This document shows, one piece after another, positions 47,490-54,462 of a DNA stretch of 64,000 nucleotides. The notes below the pieces were generated by a model. That model was not told the origin of the DNA. It made no database searches and saw only the letters and a list, made by a program, of their open reading frames with translations. Position numbers and translations under genes: made by a program. Origin of the DNA: Eubacterium plexicaudatum ASF492 (GTDB lineage: Bacteria > Bacillota > Clostridia > Lachnospirales > Lachnospiraceae); NCBI RefSeq assembly GCF_000364225.2, contig NZ_AQFT02000001.1, positions 558,001-622,000 of the forward strand. Direction: 5' to 3'. How positions within the stretch are numbered: position 1 is the first letter of the stretch; the number at the start of each line of letters is the position of its first letter.

Positions 47490-47590
47490 ATGGCAGAAAA
47501 AGAAATGATTCAAAAGAACATAGAAGATTTAAAGCAATTCTTCGGATTTTGGGTGTTAATCTGACAGATATTGACAGAATAAAAGAATAG
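47490..47590 (+). CDS. Small protein (33 aa restored) upstream of the RecQ-like gene
   Basis: ATG 47490 follows GGGAGG. The printed frame ends in TGA after 24 codons. AA at 47536-47537 read as AAA gives a smooth charged helical protein ending LTDIDRIKE and a TAG at 47588-47590. No family is recognised. It lies 86 bp before the helicase gene and might belong to that transcript. Confidence 0.4.
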
Positions 47591-47676
47591 GACAGGTATT
47601 TTGACTTTACGGAATGAATGTTTGCAAGGTGGAGATTTTATGAGCAAAGTCTCATCATAATATGAGGGAAATATTG

Positions 47677-49746
47677 ATGAAAGAATTATTGCAGGAGTTG
47701 AAAAATACTTATGGAGAAGAAGCGGAATTCAGAGACGGGCAGGAGGAAGCAATTCAGGAGGTTCTGAACGGAAAGAGACTGCTGGTAGTTCAGAAAACGG
47801 GATGGGGCAAGAGTCTGGTTTACTTTCTTGCAACCAGAATGATTAGAAAGAGAACGCAGGCGGTTACATTGATCATCAGTCCGCTTTTGGCGCTTATGAA
47901 TAATCAGATTGTTTCAGCAGATAAGCTGGGACTTCAGGTGGAAACAATAAATTCGGAAAATATGGATAACTGGGAAAGTGTTATTGAGAGACTGGAAAAG
48001 AATCGGATTGATGCCCTGATTGTCTCACCGGAACGTTTGGCGAATGAAGAATTTCAGGAACTGTTTCGTACAGGTATCCTGCGGATTGGCCTGTTTGTGG
48101 TCGATGAGGCCCATTGTATTTCTGACTGGGGACATGACTTTCGGCCGGATTACAGGCGTATCGTGGATGTGATCAGGAGACTTCCTTCCAATATCCCGGT
48201 TCTGGCTACTACGGCAACAGCCAATGACAGAGTAATCAAAGATATAAAAGAACAGCTTGGGGAGGATATCATCGTCAGTCGTGGAAGCCTGATGCGTGAG
48301 TCATTGCAGCTGCAGGTCATCAGGCTGACGACAAAAGAGGAGCGTCTGGCCTGGATATTAGATCATATTATGGAATTGCCGGGGACAGGGATTATTTACT
48401 GTTTGACTGTCAGTGACTGTCAGCTGGTATATAAATGGCTCTGTACCAATGGTATTCCCAGCAGATGCTATTATGCAGATCTCAAAAATGATGGAACAGA
48501 GGATAAACAAACGATTGTTGATTTGTTTATGACAAACCAGATTAAGGTGTTGGCAGCCACAGTGGCGTTCGGCATGGGATTTGATAAGCCGGATATTGGT
48601 TTTGTGATTCATTTTCAGAAGCCGGGAAATCTGGTGGCTTATTATCAGCAGATCGGGCGGGCCGGCAGAGGAATCAGCAGGGCATTGGCGATTCTGCTGA
48701 GCGGAGGAGAGGATAACCGGATTAACAATTACTTCATAGAATCCGCGTTTCCTACCGAAGATCTTATGGAAGAAGTCATGTCGGCGGTCAGGGAAAATCC
48801 GGATCCTGGTTTGAAGCAGTCAGATTTTGAAAAACTTATCAATATGAAGCCATCAAAGATCAAAGCATGTTTAAAATATCTGGTGGTAGAAGGGGCCATT
48901 TATAAAGATGGAGCGTATTATCGTCCTGCGGCACGTTTCTGGAAGCCGGATATGGAAAAGAGCAGAGAAATTACGGCAATCAGAAGGAATGAATTGGAGC
49001 AGATGACTGATTTTGCCGGTACCGGAAGCTGTTACATGAAATATATTGCAGGTGTACTGGATGATTCTCGTGCAAAAGCCTGTGGAACATGTTCGAACTG
49101 CCTGAACAGGCCGATAGTATCGGAAGAGCTTCGGCAGAATACGCTTTTAAAGGCACAGAGTTTTATAAAGGAAGATTTTCATGAGATCGATCCGCGCAAA
49201 CAGTGGCCTTCGGGCGTTTTGGTAGATGGAAAGAACAGAATTCCAAAGGAATTTTTGTGTGAGACCGGAAGAGTGTTAAGCTATTATGGAGATGCAGGAT
49301 GGGGCAGACTTGTAGCTGAGGGCAAATACAGAGATCATCATTTTGACGATCAGCTGGTAGAAGCGGCGGCAGGGCTTCTTACCGATTTTGTAGAGGAACA
49401 TGAAATTCGGTGGGTAACAGGCATTCCGTCCTTGAGGAGGCCTGCGTTAGTGCCGGAATTTGCCCGCAGGCTGGCGGCACAGCTGCATTTGAATTATGCG
49501 CAGGTGATTGAGAAAGTAAAAGATACCAGATGCCAGAAAGAATTGAATACCAGTTTTCTCCAATATGAAAACGTAAAAGATTCCTTTGAAGTGAAACAGG
49601 CTTTTAGTGAAAATGTGTTATTGGTCGATGATATGGTAGATTCCAGATGGACATTTACCGTATGTGGTTATAAGCTTCGTGAAAGCGGAAGCGGTAAGGT
49701 GTTTCCGTTTGCACTGGCTAGCAGTGCAGGCAGGGATGGGAGATGA
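47677..49746 (+). CDS. RecQ-like helicase fused to a phosphoribosyltransferase domain
   Basis: The 689-aa protein starts with a RecQ-type SF2 helicase: Walker A QKTGWGKSLVYF, DEAH box VVDEAHCISDWGHDF, ATTATAN, and motif VI QQIGRAGRG. A four-Cys zinc module follows (GSCYMK... CGTCSNC, about residues 445-478). Instead of the RQC and HRDC domains, the C-terminal 200 residues form a PRTase domain (WVTGIPSLRRPALVPEFA; VLLVDDMVDSRWT, the PRPP-binding loop). ATG 47677 follows GAGGG at good spacing; the ATG five codons earlier has none. It ends 4 bp before a DprA-like gene. It is distinct from housekeeping RecQ. Confidence 0.92.
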   Translation: MKELLQELKNTYGEEAEFRDGQEEAIQEVLNGKRLLVVQKTGWGKSLVYFLATRMIRKRTQAVTLIISPLLALMNNQIVSADKLGLQVETINSENMDNWESVIERLEKNRIDALIVSPERLANEEFQELFRTGILRIGLFVVDEAHCISDWGHDFRPDYRRIVDVIRRLPSNIPVLATTATANDRVIKDIKEQLGEDIIVSRGSLMRESLQLQVIRLTTKEERLAWILDHIMELPGTGIIYCLTVSDCQLVYKWLCTNGIPSRCYYADLKNDGTEDKQTIVDLFMTNQIKVLAATVAFGMGFDKPDIGFVIHFQKPGNLVAYYQQIGRAGRGISRALAILLSGGEDNRINNYFIESAFPTEDLMEEVMSAVRENPDPGLKQSDFEKLINMKPSKIKACLKYLVVEGAIYKDGAYYRPAARFWKPDMEKSREITAIRRNELEQMTDFAGTGSCYMKYIAGVLDDSRAKACGTCSNCLNRPIVSEELRQNTLLKAQSFIKEDFHEIDPRKQWPSGVLVDGKNRIPKEFLCETGRVLSYYGDAGWGRLVAEGKYRDHHFDDQLVEAAAGLLTDFVEEHEIRWVTGIPSLRRPALVPEFARRLAAQLHLNYAQVIEKVKDTRCQKELNTSFLQYENVKDSFEVKQAFSENVLLVDDMVDSRWTFTVCGYKLRESGSGKVFPFALASSAGRDGR

Positions 49747-49750
49747 ATCA

Positions 49751-50982
49751 ATGAAATTTTCAGAAAATGCAATGTGTGCAATTTTGCTGTGTTCTTATGT
49801 GGGAATCGGCAAAGAGGATGCCTTTAAACCGCTGACATTGAAAGAATGGAATGCATTTTTGGATCAGGCTGCTCAGAGTGGACAGCAACCCGGCGCGATC
49901 ATGGATCCGCATTTTTTGAAAGAGACAGGCTGCAGCAGAGAGTATATGGAGCGGATTGAAAGGCTGGTGTCCCGGGGCGGCGCAGCTGCTTTTGCGCTGG
50001 AAGAGCTGGAGAAAAAGGGGATCGATATTGTGACGCAGTTTGACTCGGATTATCCGATACTGATCAAACGAAAGCTGAGAAGGAAAGCTCCGCCGGTTTT
50101 CTTTTATTCCGGGGATATCAGCCTGGCAAAAAAATAGGGATCGGTGTTGCAGGATCCAGGAATATAGATGAGGAGGGAGTACGATTTACGCAGAAGCTGG
50201 TGGAAAAAGCAGCGGCAGAACGTCTGGTCATCTATTCCGGGGGCGCAAGAGGAATTGATACGGTTTCAGAGCGGGCAGCTGTGGAATTAGGTTCGGCAGC
50301 GATTTCATTTGTGGCAGATTCTCTTTTAACGAAAATCAGAAAAAAAGATATTCTGGATGCAATTATCAATAAGAAGCAGCTTCTTTTATCAGATGTGAAG
50401 CCGGATGTCGGATTTTCAGCAGCCAGAGCAATGAATCGGAACAAATATATCTATACTTCTTCTTATGGAACTTTTGTAGTGGCTTCTGATTATAATTCAG
50501 GCGGTACCTGGGCCGGTGCTACAGAGGCATTGAAGAATGAATGGACCAAAGTTCTGGTCTGGCAGAATAACAAATATGCCGGAAATGAGAAATTGATCGA
50601 AAAAGGAGCAGTGCCTTACAGCTTTTCAGAAGCATCTCTTTTTGAGCTGCTTACAGAGAAGAAGGAGACTTTTCAGCAAATAGATCTGTTTTCTATTTCT
50701 GGTGAAGCGGTGGAAAATCAGGGCAAATGTGCGGATATAGCAAAAGAGCATAAGAGTGAGGAGCAAAAGAGCCGGCAGATGCCGGAAAGAGGGACAGCGG
50801 AGATTCCGGATCTGTACCATGTGATTGCTCCGTATGTGGTGGAACACATTGGGGAAGGGATGACGAAGGAAGAGGCTGCAGAGGTATTTCAAGTGGCAAA
50901 AGGACAGATGAATACTTGGCTGAAGCAGTTGTGCAGGGATTCCTTTTTGAAATATGTAAAAGGGCGCTATGTAAAGCGGTAA
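49751..50982 (+). CDS. DprA/Smf-like protein paired with the RecQ-PRTase (apparent frameshift)
   Basis: ATG 49751 follows GGGAGATGA. The first half (about 130 aa) is helical with FDSDYPILIKRKLRRKAPPVFFYSGDISLAKK and then breaks. One more A in the run 50128-50134 gives IGIGVAGSRNIDEEGVRF, the DprA Rossmann start, continuing to YSGGARGIDTVSERAAVE and YGTFVVASDYNSGGTWAGATEAL. A C-terminal winged-helix-like part spans about residues 355-410. The restored length is 410 aa. DprA folds bind single-stranded DNA or nucleotides. Tight coupling to the helicase indicates a joint function. Confidence 0.88.
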
Positions 50983-51087
50983 AATGGCATTCTTCCAAAG
51001 CTGCAACGATAACTCTGGGATTAAAGTTACACTGTGCGCATGCAGTGTTTAAGCTTTTATACCAAGCGAGAGTCCTTTTGCTGTTAG

Positions 51088-51155: not shown

Positions 51156-52086
51156 TTAAAGATAATACATTTCCACATACTTTCTGGCATCCTGTAATGT
51201 AAGATCGCATTCTTTTTGAAGTTTTTCGACTGCGGTTACCTGCGGTACACCGAAGTCTTTGCAGATTTTTACGATACCCTCAATTTTGCCCTCGATTTTG
51301 CCCTCGATTTTGCCCTCAATTTTGCCTTCGATTTTACCCTCAATTCTGCCTTTTTCTCTGCTTGCATTTTCTAATTCCTGTAAAGCCGTACACATATTCA
51401 TAACACCTCCTCTGCTTTTCAGTGCTTCGTTCATAAGTACGGTGGATTCGGATGCCGCACCAATGGCGAGTCCAAGCTCCGTGCTGATTTCACGGGTTTT
51501 ATATACTTCTTCAATTTTACGATAATCTCTGCGGTAGATGTTTCGCATAATCTCAAAAAAATCCTGGACATCTGAATTTTGGAACGGTATTCTTCGCTGC
51601 CATGAATTTGAATGAGATTGATCTTATAATCGTTGACAAAGCTTCTTAACTGTTTAGGAATATGTTGCATATCCAGCATATCTAATAAAGAATAAGGTCC
51701 ATCCCAGGCCGTTTCTCCATAATAAACGCATATGGTGACAACCGCATGCAGGCGGTCTTCCCTGCGCAGGCCGGAGAGAAATTCAGCGTCATTTTGCAGC
51801 GGTTCGGATTGTTTGTTGCGTTTGACTGTTTCGGAATATTCCTTCATATAAATAAGCGCGTCTGCTGTCATATTTCTAAGAGGCATGGCATAATGTACTT
51901 TCATTTGGTTTTCCAGCCCAAGAATTACAAAATCAATGCCATAAGAGCTTTTCTTTACAACATATCGGGTTGTAGAATTTTTTCGCCGTGAAACAAAGAA
52001 CCATTAAATAAATCAGCAAAACGGTCATTGTCACGCCAGAAATTTTTCAGCACAATGTCCGGTTTCAGTTTGTTTTTTACAGCCAT
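51156..52086 (-). pseudogene. Rpn-family (PD-(D/E)XK transposase_31) protein, internally deleted and frameshifted
   Basis: The start at 52086 gives the family N-terminus (VKNKLKPDIVLKNFWRDNDRFADLFNGSLF) and soon stops. The next segment (VVKKSSYGIDFVILGLENQMKVHYAMPLRNM) is in another frame and about 30 residues appear missing between them, which removes nuclease-core residues. AA at 51583-51584 should be AAA to join FQNSDVQDFFEIMRNIYRRDYRKIEEVYK. The C-terminus carries six IEGK units and a helical tail. Rpn proteins promote recombination and are often mobile. This copy is probably inactive. Confidence 0.75.
51277..51350 (-). repeat. 12-bp tandem repeat encoding IEGK units
   Basis: About six near-identical 12-bp units (ATTTTGCCCTCG on the plus strand) lie inside the Rpn gene. 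Units of 12 bp keep the frame, so copy number could vary without breaking the protein. Confidence 0.85.
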
Positions 52087-52885: not shown

Positions 52886-53220
52886 ATGTATGAATTAGAT
52901 TATTCAAAAATGGGAGTCAGAATCTGCCAGGTTCGCAAACTGAAAGGCTTATCGCAGATTGAGCTTGCAAAAAAATGCGGCATCAGTCTGAGCTTCATGG
53001 GTCATATTGAGCGCGGAACAAAAAAATGAGCATGGATACGTTTGCCACTTTGTGCAGAGAGTTAGAGACCGATGCGGACGGGCTGCTCTGGGGAGTGACG
53101 CAGCCGTCGGAAGCATCCATTCAGAGTATGTGGAAACGGCTGGATCAGAAGAAGGAGGACAGCTATTCGATGTATATCAGAATTATGAAGTCAGTGGCGG
53201 AGATTATGAATGAAGCGTGA
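52886..53220 (+). CDS. XRE-family HTH regulator (apparent frameshift)
   Basis: ATG 52886 follows AGGAGATG. The HTH is complete (MGVRICQVRKLKGLSQIELAKKCGISLSFMGHIERGTKK) but the printed frame stops at TGA 53027. One more A in the run 53020-53026 continues as MSMDTFATLCRELETDADGLLWG to TGA 53220 (111 aa), the normal length of such regulators. It overlaps the first glycosyltransferase gene by 11 bp and probably regulates the polysaccharide cluster. Confidence 0.85.
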
Positions 53221-54462
53221 GGATGGGGCGGCTAAGAAAGTGCTGATGGCAGTATCGGTTGCGTCCATGATTGATCAGTTTAATATGCCGAATATCCGAT
53301 TGCTGTCAGAGCTGGGGTATGAAGTGCATGTAATGTGTAATTTCATGGAAGGCAATACATGCAGCGATCAGCGGATTCGTGAATTTCGAAAGACGCTGAA
53401 CGGTATGGGGGTCGTATGCCATCAGTGGGACTGTCCAAGAAGCATAGTTCCGGCAGGAAAGTGCTTAAGAGCGTATAGGCAGCTATGGAAGCTGACAGGT
53501 CAGGAGCGGTATGAATGGATACATTGCCAGTCACCGGTTGGCGGAGTATTGGCAAGACTGGTTATGCGCAGGAGGGGGATTCGGGTGATCTATACGGCGC
53601 ACGGTTTTCATTTTTACCGTGGTGCTCCGCTGAAAAACTGGCTGCTGTATTATCCGATAGAGAGACTACTGGCTTATTGGACAGATGTGTTGATTACTGT
53701 GAACAAGGAAGATTATTGCTTTGCAAAGCGGAAGCTGCGGGCATCAAAAATATACTATATTCCGGGTGTTGGAATTGATACGGCCATGTTTGCCGGTTTG
53801 CAGCCGCAATGCGCCGGAAAGAGCGCGAGAAAACAATTTTGCAGGAAATATCAGATTCCGCAGGACGTAATCGTGCTGCTGTCTGTGGGCGAATTGAACA
53901 GAGGAAAAATCATCGTATGGTGATTGACGCGCTGGCAGCTTTGGACAGGCAGGATGTGCATTATTTGATCTGCGGCAAGGGAAAGCTGCGCAGGGAGCTG
54001 CAGCAGTATGCATACAGGCTTGGAGTAGGTGACTATATCCATCTGCCGGGTTATCAGGAGCATGTGGAGTGGATTTATCAGAATGCGGATATTTTTGTGT
54101 TTCCGTCTGTCCGGGAAGGAATGCCTGTCGCATTAATGGAAGCCATGGCTGCGGGAATGCCTTGTGTGGTTTCAGACATCAGAGGAAACCGTGAACTGAT
54201 TCAGGATATCGCAGCGCCTGCGGACCATATGCGGATCAGCGCCGCTGCAGCAATGATAAATACGAAATCAGGCGGCATTCGATTTTCATTAAAGCAGCCA
54301 TGGCAGCTTCGGCAGGGGCTGGCGCGGATGATAGTAGATGACAGGCTGCGGCAGGCATGCGGAAGGCATAATCAGGAGAAGATCGGAAAATACGACCAGG
54401 CAGTTGTGCAAAGAAAGATGTGGAAGATATATCAAAAGATGGGTGACAGGAATGCGTTCTGA
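53210..54462 (+). CDS. Glycosyltransferase family 4 (apparent frameshift)
   Basis: The restored protein is 417 aa. The N-terminal half (VLMAVSVASMIDQFNMPNIRLLSELGYEVHVMCNF; VIYTAHGFHFYRGAP) is the acceptor domain of GT4 enzymes. The C-terminal half has HRMVIDALAAL, LPGYQEHVEWIYQNADIFVFPSVREGMPVALMEAMAAGMPCVV, with the donor-site EGMPVALMEA. The break is at the A run 53905-53909 (one A missing), joining LNRGK to NHRMVIDAL. It probably adds an early sugar of the repeat unit in the cytoplasm. Confidence 0.9.

What the first reader, a model, noticed from the sequence alone, without database searches (positions are those of the whole stretch)
47677..50982. RecQ-phosphoribosyltransferase fusion coupled to a DprA-like protein: candidate defence or nucleotide-signalling system
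A RecQ-type helicase has lost the RQC/HRDC region and gained a PRTase with an intact PRPP loop (VLLVDDMVDSRW). It is followed 4 bp later by a protein with DprA Rossmann motifs and a C-terminal winged helix. A helicase that finds DNA ends, a PRPP-using domain and a ssDNA-binding DprA fold together suggest sensing of foreign DNA with modification of nucleotides or termini. I recall computational reports of DprA-PRTase conflict systems, but not a biochemical mechanism. The adjoining Rpn gene and 33-aa ORF make this a small accessory island.
Basis: partly seen in the sequence, partly recalled or inferred. Interest (0 to 1): 0.75.

Follow-up and report, generated by a model that had tools for sequence, protein, structure and literature searches.

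The report
PsyrTA (RqlHI) toxin-antitoxin gene pair
This is a new copy of a known two-gene bacterial toxin-antitoxin and candidate phage-defence system: a helicase fused to a damaging enzyme domain, and a DprA-like partner whose gene reads as broken here, most likely through a sequencing error.

Summary
[quoted passage not shown] It matches PsyrT/RqlH full length (PADLOC E 1.2e-269). The next gene is PsyrA/RqlI, its DprA-like antitoxin. The family is known: in E. coli, RqlH damages cells through its PRTase domain unless RqlI restrains it (PMC4670107).

In 10 of 10 other psyrT loci from the phylum, psyrA is intact and adjacent. The break is probably an assembly error: both essential genes tested in this assembly, rpoB and polC, are also split, and frameshift-like breaks are about six times commoner than in control genomes. 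Real decay is not excluded: the neighbouring Rpn-like gene lacks 79 bp.

The pair is patchy (1 of 13 genomes of the genus, 5 of 397 sampled from the family). Elsewhere it sits inside type I restriction and BREX operons, beside CBASS, and on mobile elements. A paralogous locus in this genome lacks both genes.

Verdict: member of a known kind; the defence idea is reasonable but already in print.

The parts
47677..49746 (+). psyrT/rqlH: RecQ-like DEAH helicase fused to a C-terminal phosphoribosyltransferase (open frame from 47662; 47677 is the likelier start)
   Evidence: PADLOC PsyrT E 1.2e-269 over profile 6-687 of 689; Pfam DEAD, Helicase_C, RecQ_Zn_bind; 44-74% identical to nine full-length relatives
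47734..48669 (+). helicase core: Walker A TGWGKS (K50) and DEAH (148-151), numbered from 47662
   Evidence: Pfam; invariant in 10 of 10 aligned proteins
48955..49104 (+). RecQ zinc-binding domain (C457, C474, C477, C480)
   Evidence: Pfam RecQ_Zn_bind 8.1e-7; the four cysteines are invariant in 5 of 5 rows of the first alignment; the CxxC is missing in L087 and L088
49159..49731 (+). type I phosphoribosyltransferase domain; PRPP loop VLLVDDMVDSRWT at 49615-49653
   Evidence: AlphaFold2 model (mean pLDDT 61.4; residues 1-67 of 200 under 50); PurF best Foldseek E 6.0e-5; VIA Z 11.2, 3.9 A, 133 aligned to 1ecf_A
49751..50137 (+). psyrA/rqlI, first part (128 codons and TAG)
   Evidence: PADLOC PsyrA 6.7e-30, profile 1-130
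50128..50137 (+). frame break: seven A followed by TAG
   Evidence: the aligned place lies in one open frame in four distinct relatives
50134..50982 (+). psyrA/rqlI, remainder in the other frame; DprA Rossmann part, winged helix near the C-terminus
   Evidence: PADLOC PsyrA 6.4e-54, Pfam DNA_processg_A 2.1e-18 (both on the frame from 50200); winged-helix part modelled with pLDDT 70-86 over residues 361-410 of the L009 homologue
51156..52086 (-). Rpn-like (Transposase_31, PF04754) gene, broken; not part of the pair
   Evidence: Pfam 1.3e-4, 22.1 bits against cut-off 21; compared with the intact paralogue L036:5286-6284 it lacks 79 bp and one base of an A run
47621..47698 (+). left flank plus first bases of psyrT that also occur in the psyrTA-less paralogous locus
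   Evidence: 84.8% identical over 79 columns to L036:5128-5206

Best explanation
The pair is PsyrTA, also called RqlHI, in what is taken to be a clostridial genome (the nearest named relative is titled 'uncultured Clostridium sp.'). PsyrT is a RecQ-type helicase carrying a PRTase domain; PsyrA is a DprA-fold protein that binds and restrains it. In the resting cell the complex is harmless. If PsyrA is titrated or lost, for instance because invading or damaged DNA engages its DprA fold, the PRTase acts on DNA or on nucleobases at DNA, causes damage, and stops growth: an abortive-infection or addiction outcome. Shown here: architecture, conserved motifs, adjacency, patchiness, mobile and defence neighbourhoods elsewhere. 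Shown by others in E. coli: toxicity, its dependence on the PRTase, neutralisation and physical binding by RqlI. Inferred: the trigger, the chemistry, and any protection in this host. The frame break in psyrA is most likely an assembly error (about 0.78).
For: Full-length profile match to PsyrT and, in two frames, to PsyrA. The pair is adjacent and in the same order, with psyrA in one open frame, in 10 of 10 other loci of the phylum. It is patchy: 1 of 13 genus genomes with a full-length match; at E up to 1e-140, 5 of 397 family, 3 of 391 class and 5 of 398 phylum genomes, own genome counted each time. Defence neighbours: inside a type I RM operon on an E. coli conjugative plasmid, inside BREX on an Acinetobacter plasmid, and on a viral-collection contig beside a CBASS cyclase and phospholipase, a WYL regulator and a type I methyltransferase. 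In G356 the pair lies downstream of an integrase and MobC. PRTase fold. Published genetics in PMC4670107. For the assembly-error reading: rpoB and polC split, 2 of 2 tested; 23 unexplained frame switches in 383 kb against 3 in 279 kb and 1 in 140 kb of controls; both parts of psyrA keep the same third-position excess of changes.
Against: No phage protection by PsyrTA was detected in the one native-host study whose passages I read (PMC12409345), so a defence role is not established. The chemistry of the PRTase is unknown. Its PRPP loop has R where canonical loops have G, Pfam gives no PRTase match, and the model is of low confidence, with query TM-scores of 0.34-0.46 in the 50 rows shown. In the window I recognised no other defence gene beside the pair; apart from psyrT, psyrA and one Rpn piece, this was by reading translations. 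One of the three plasmid loci opened (Nostoc) and the L034 locus show no defence neighbour. The adjacent Rpn copy has a 79-bp deletion, so real decay is at work next to psyrA.
Confidence: 0.82

Rival explanations
1. The psyrA break is real: this strain keeps an intact PsyrT with a dead or truncated PsyrA, tolerated because PsyrT is weakly expressed or not toxic in this host.
For: A neighbouring Rpn-like gene carries a 79-bp deletion relative to its paralogue, which is not a homopolymer error. A 2015 survey reported that 99.6% of Gram-positive bacteria in its set have RqlH only (PMC4670107 section 15).
Against: 0 of 10 other psyrT loci of the phylum have a broken or missing psyrA. Essential genes rpoB and polC are split in the same assembly. 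No long-standing decay is visible in either part of psyrA.
Confidence: 0.17
2. The A run is a switch: replication slippage, transcriptional slippage or -1 ribosomal frameshifting on A AAA AAA sets how much full-length antitoxin is made.
For: The seven A stand in the register A_AAA_AAA just before the stop; relatives also have A-rich codons there.
Against: Four distinct relatives read through in one frame without any shift, and the run is not conserved in length. No stimulatory structure was sought. Assembly errors explain it more simply.
Confidence: 0.05
3. It is a housekeeping repair pair (RecQ plus DprA functions) rather than a conflict system.
For: RecQ and DprA folds are repair/recombination folds; Russell and Mulvey propose an undefined beneficial function on DNA.
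Against: It is patchy within the genus and family. The genome has another RecQ-like frame (C1:3670563-3671585) and another DprA-like frame (C1:1907189-1907905). Relatives lie inside RM and BREX operons.
Confidence: 0.06

Closest known systems
RqlHI of uropathogenic E. coli F11 (PMC4670107; abstract, sections 11, 12, 15 and part 1 of 16 read)
   Same: RecQ-like helicase fused to a PRTase, followed directly by a DprA-like gene; the helicase and PRPP-loop residues mutated there (K49, D148, DIVD663) have counterparts here (K50, D148, DMVD)
   Different: Different phylum; psyrA frame broken in this assembly. F11 RqlH itself was not fetched; an E. coli plasmid relative is 46% identical
PsyrTA of Pseudomonas syringae (Sberro et al. 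2013, recalled and as cited in passages of PMC8790059 and PMC9122126; the paper itself not seen)
   Same: The PADLOC PsyrT model matches nearly full length and the PsyrA model matches in two frames
   Different: Different phylum; original paper not read
DprA-PRTase two-gene system of P2-like phages (PMC9122126, passages seen): protects against T7 and lambda
   Same: DprA-like protein paired with a PRTase
   Different: The passage describes the PRTase as a partner and names no helicase; here it is fused to one
ShosTA
   Same: DprA-like antitoxin; the ShosA model matches the psyrA C part at 1.5e-11
   Different: PsyrA matches far better (6.4e-54)

Membership tests
PsyrTA / RqlHI | RecQ-like helicase with intact Walker A and DEAH | tested here: met
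PsyrTA / RqlHI | C-terminal PRTase with PRPP-loop acidic residues | tested here: met
   DD..D and T invariant in 10 of 10 rows; fold matches of a low-confidence model; glycine position is R here
PsyrTA / RqlHI | full-length match to the PsyrT model | tested here: met
   1.2e-269, 6-687 of 689
PsyrTA / RqlHI | DprA-like partner directly downstream, same strand | tested here: met
   starts 4 bp after psyrT; PsyrA model matched in two frames
PsyrTA / RqlHI | intact antitoxin reading frame | tested here: inconclusive
   broken in this assembly, which has frame errors in rpoB and polC
PsyrTA / RqlHI | toxin activity neutralised by the partner | not testable with these tools
   published for E. coli (PMC4670107)
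PsyrTA / RqlHI | protection against phage | not testable with these tools
   no protection detected in the E. coli native-host study PMC12409345 (passages)
canonical RecQ | match above the curated RecQ equivalog cut-off, HRDC present | tested here: not met
   TIGR01389 318 bits against cut-off 640; no HRDC match at E up to 1. The wider RecQ family model TIGR00614 is passed: 267 against 220 bits
canonical DprA | match above the curated DprA equivalog cut-off | tested here: not met
   TIGR00732 48.5 bits against 191 on the C part only
DprA-PRTase system of P2-like phages | PRTase as a separate protein beside DprA | tested here: not met
   here it is fused to a helicase
ShosTA | toxin gene of the ShosT type | tested here: inconclusive
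   ShosT is not among the 25 rows shown of 40 for PsyrT

The most novel reading that the evidence does not exclude
The seven-A run in psyrA is a genuine slippage site that lets a population switch the antitoxin between full-length and truncated forms, so that a subpopulation carries an armed PsyrT: phase-variable abortive infection.
Probability: 0.04. Interest if true: 0.6.

Novelty: new member of a known kind. Interest (0 to 1): 0.22.

Why it matters
It resolves a candidate 'unknown' as PsyrTA/RqlHI. It adds loci of this phylum in which psyrT and psyrA are linked (10 of 10 examined besides this one), whereas the 2015 survey, with different criteria, found RqlI almost absent from Gram-positive bacteria. 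It adds examples of the pair nested inside RM and BREX operons. It also shows that an apparently armed toxin with a dead antitoxin can be produced by assembly errors, a trap for surveys of toxin-antitoxin systems. What the PRTase does to DNA remains open.

Tried and rejected
Sequence search of the PRTase domain alone against solved structures gave only three PRPP synthetases at E 0.85-0.9, so a model and fold search were used. Pfam gave no PRTase match on PsyrT at E up to 1. The model of the L009 PsyrA was too poor for a fold search (mean pLDDT 43.2) and was used only for its winged-helix end. A conserved programmed frameshift was considered and rejected, because the aligned place in relatives is in frame and the run varies in length. 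The phage collection held no full-length relative (0 of 25 matching records with at least 80% of the query). In one search one query piece of psyrA was translated in the wrong frame; its hits were discarded and the work repeated. In one search the rpoB and polC loci were read on the wrong strand; repeated. For nucleotide signalling I found nothing, but ran no dedicated search. An attempt to find the empty site in the genus by the nagB flank gave nagB-region matches and short repeats; their neighbours were not read further. A paralogous locus in the same genome was more informative. Literature searches; of the papers listed I opened four (PMC4670107, PMC9122126, PMC12409345, PMC8790059).

Mended on checking: the Rpn deletion is 79 bp, not the 76 unmatched bases first written; the intact Rpn copy lies 5-6 kb past the window's end, not 11 kb.

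Full report
WHAT IS THERE. Pfam finds DEAD (4.5e-27), Helicase_C (7.8e-14) and RecQ_Zn_bind (8.1e-7) but no RQC, HRDC or PRTase at E up to 1. PADLOC's PsyrT model matches from 6 to 687 of 689 positions with E 1.2e-269. The next gene starts 4 bp after the stop, at 49751. Its frame ends after 128 codons at TAG 50135-50137, and the protein goes on in another frame to 50982. PsyrA matches the first part at profile 1-130 (6.7e-30), and the frame from 50200 at profile 155-386 (6.4e-54). A six-frame search of the genome matches profile 1-133 and 132-386 in the two frames.

PRTase. The C-terminal 200 residues were modelled from four sequences (mean pLDDT 61.4, pTM 0.61; residues 1-67 are under 50). 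Foldseek's best PDB matches are PurF (6.0e-5), then adenine PRTases, with ComF at 1.0e-3. VIA-align gives PurF 1ecf_A Z 11.2, 3.9 A over 133 residues. The loop VLLVDDMVDSRWT keeps both aspartates, the third aspartate and the threonine in 10 of 10 aligned proteins. The position that is glycine in canonical PRPP loops (recalled) is R in seven rows, K in one, and G in two, the E. coli plasmid and Acinetobacter rows. Catalysis is plausible but untested.

WHAT IT IS. RqlH and RqlI of E. coli F11 were studied by Russell and Mulvey (PMC4670107; I read the abstract, sections 11, 12 and 15, and part 1 of section 16). RqlH alone induces SOS, filamentation and loss of growth. Deleting the PRTase or changing its PRPP-loop aspartate removes most of the effect; the PRTase alone is not sufficient, and helicase mutants are still harmful. 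RqlI binds RqlH and relieves it. The authors propose that the PRTase modifies a nucleotide in DNA. PsyrTA is called a validated toxin-antitoxin family in PMC8790059 (passages). PMC9122126 (passages) reports that a DprA-PRTase pair of P2-like phages protects against T7 and lambda, suggests that DprA senses phage DNA and activates the PRTase, and names rqlHI in support. In PMC12409345 (passages) PsyrTA of an E. coli isolate showed no detectable protection, and the strain expressing it had a growth defect.

DISTRIBUTION. With the PsyrT model, only the own genome has a full-length match among 13 genomes of the genus; the other 12 match only over the shared helicase part, up to about profile position 376. 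At E up to 1e-140 there are 5 of 397 genomes of the family, 3 of 391 of the class and 5 of 398 of the phylum, the own genome counted each time and the samples overlapping. That is 10 distinct other genomes. In all 10, a single open psyrA of 333-452 aa starts within four bases of the psyrT stop. Two of them (L031, L095) are short, 337 and 333 aa. The locus from the named collection (L009, 'uncultured Clostridium sp.') is the same stretch as L029/L033 and is not counted twice. Of the 14 control genomes one, Corynebacterium glutamicum, rings at this threshold; its neighbourhood was not read.

NEIGHBOURHOODS. Of the 12 plasmid records in which one place covers at least 80% of the query (of 191 with a match) I opened the top three by rank. 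On the E. coli conjugative plasmid the pair lies between hsdS and hsdR. On the Acinetobacter plasmid it lies between pglX and a DUF262 gene followed by pglZ. On the Nostoc plasmid it follows parAB with no defence gene named, though a reverse-transcriptase N-terminal domain lies nearby. All three have the DprA gene directly downstream. Of four viral-collection loci, L088 carries a CBASS-type cyclase and patatin phospholipase, a WYL regulator, psyrT, psyrA and a type I methyltransferase, followed by a specificity-subunit-like frame judged by eye. L087 ends at psyrT. L089 matches only over the helicase half. L090 is a weak match. Among the relatives, G356 has an integrase, MobC, a relaxase-like pair of frames judged by eye (its 542-aa part has no Pfam match), psyrTA, and a protein with a Schlafen/AlbA domain. 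L035 has a WYL regulator before and an HNH gene after the pair; L009 has an HNH gene after it. In L034 I recognised nothing by eye and scanned nothing. The six other loci were fetched with short flanks and their neighbours were not read. In the window itself the pair lies between an amino-sugar cluster and a glycosyltransferase cluster, judged by eye.

THE BREAK IN psyrA. At the aligned place four distinct relatives read GCC CAA AAA ATA, GCA AAG AAA ATA, TCG AAA AAA ATA and GCG AGC AAA GTA in one frame. Here the run of A is one base out of register. Four observations bear on whether it is real. (a) A home-made frame model found 84 same-strand frame switches in 383 kb of this genome, 28 in 279 kb of G356 and 13 in 140 kb of other genus members. 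After removing those explained by a stop, start and ribosome-binding site, 23, 3 and 1 remain; 10 of the 23 have a homopolymer in the overlap, and psyrA is one of the 23. Thresholds were set by hand. (b) Of two essential genes tested, both are split: rpoB into frames of 356 and 1046 aa, polC into 381, 1025 and 118 aa. That a living cell cannot lack these is general knowledge, so the assembly very probably has indel errors. (c) Against the L009 homologue both parts of psyrA show the same pattern as psyrT, with 0.52-0.54 changes at third positions and 0.12-0.14 at second positions, so no long-standing decay is visible. (d) On the other side, the Rpn-like gene just downstream lacks 79 bp compared with an intact paralogue 5-6 kb beyond the window's end (L036:5286-6284), so real loss seems also at work nearby. 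I put the assembly-error reading at about 0.78.

A LOCUS WITHOUT THE PAIR. The paralogous stretch L036 has the same order of Rpn-like gene, HTH region (73% identical over 149 columns) and GT4-type glycosyltransferase (66%), but no psyrTA between its left flank and the Rpn-like gene. Window 47621-47698, which includes the first bases of psyrT, matches L036:5128-5206 at 84.8%, with a one-base gap. The next match, window 51070 onward, begins at L036:5203. The bases GAGT stand at window 47695-47698, window 51070-51073 and L036:5203-5206. The simplest reading is that a duplicated copy lost both genes together by deletion between short repeats, leaving the start of psyrT; insertion here at such a site is the alternative. 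Either way toxin and antitoxin moved as a unit, as expected of such a pair. This rests on one 79-column match and is inference.

VERDICT. Known kind, new member; the defence idea is sensible and already in print; trigger and chemistry appear open for the family in the papers I saw.

Noticed in passing
window 51156-52086 (-) and L036:5286-6284 (-): Two near-identical copies (94-96% DNA) of an Rpn-like (PF04754) gene in one genome, about 18 kb apart: the one 5-6 kb past the window's end is intact with 332 codons; the window copy lacks 79 bp and one base of an A run.
   Followed up: partly
window 53210-54462: A GT4-type glycosyltransferase (by eye) is split into two frames near 53915, while a related copy in L036 (7265-8464) is intact with 399 codons.
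   Followed up: partly
window 47548-47592: A stretch of about 40 bases recurs at many places across the genus (75-97% identical); it may be the end of a small, often repeated gene.
   Followed up: no
G000:C1:4518324-4521907 and C1:2149567-2153206: rpoB and polC are split into two and three frames in this assembly, so single-base frame breaks in this genome should not be taken at face value.
   Followed up: yes
L088:2899-13417: A compact defence island: CBASS-type cyclase and phospholipase, WYL regulator, PsyrTA, type I methyltransferase and a specificity-subunit-like frame on a contig of the viral collection.
   Followed up: partly
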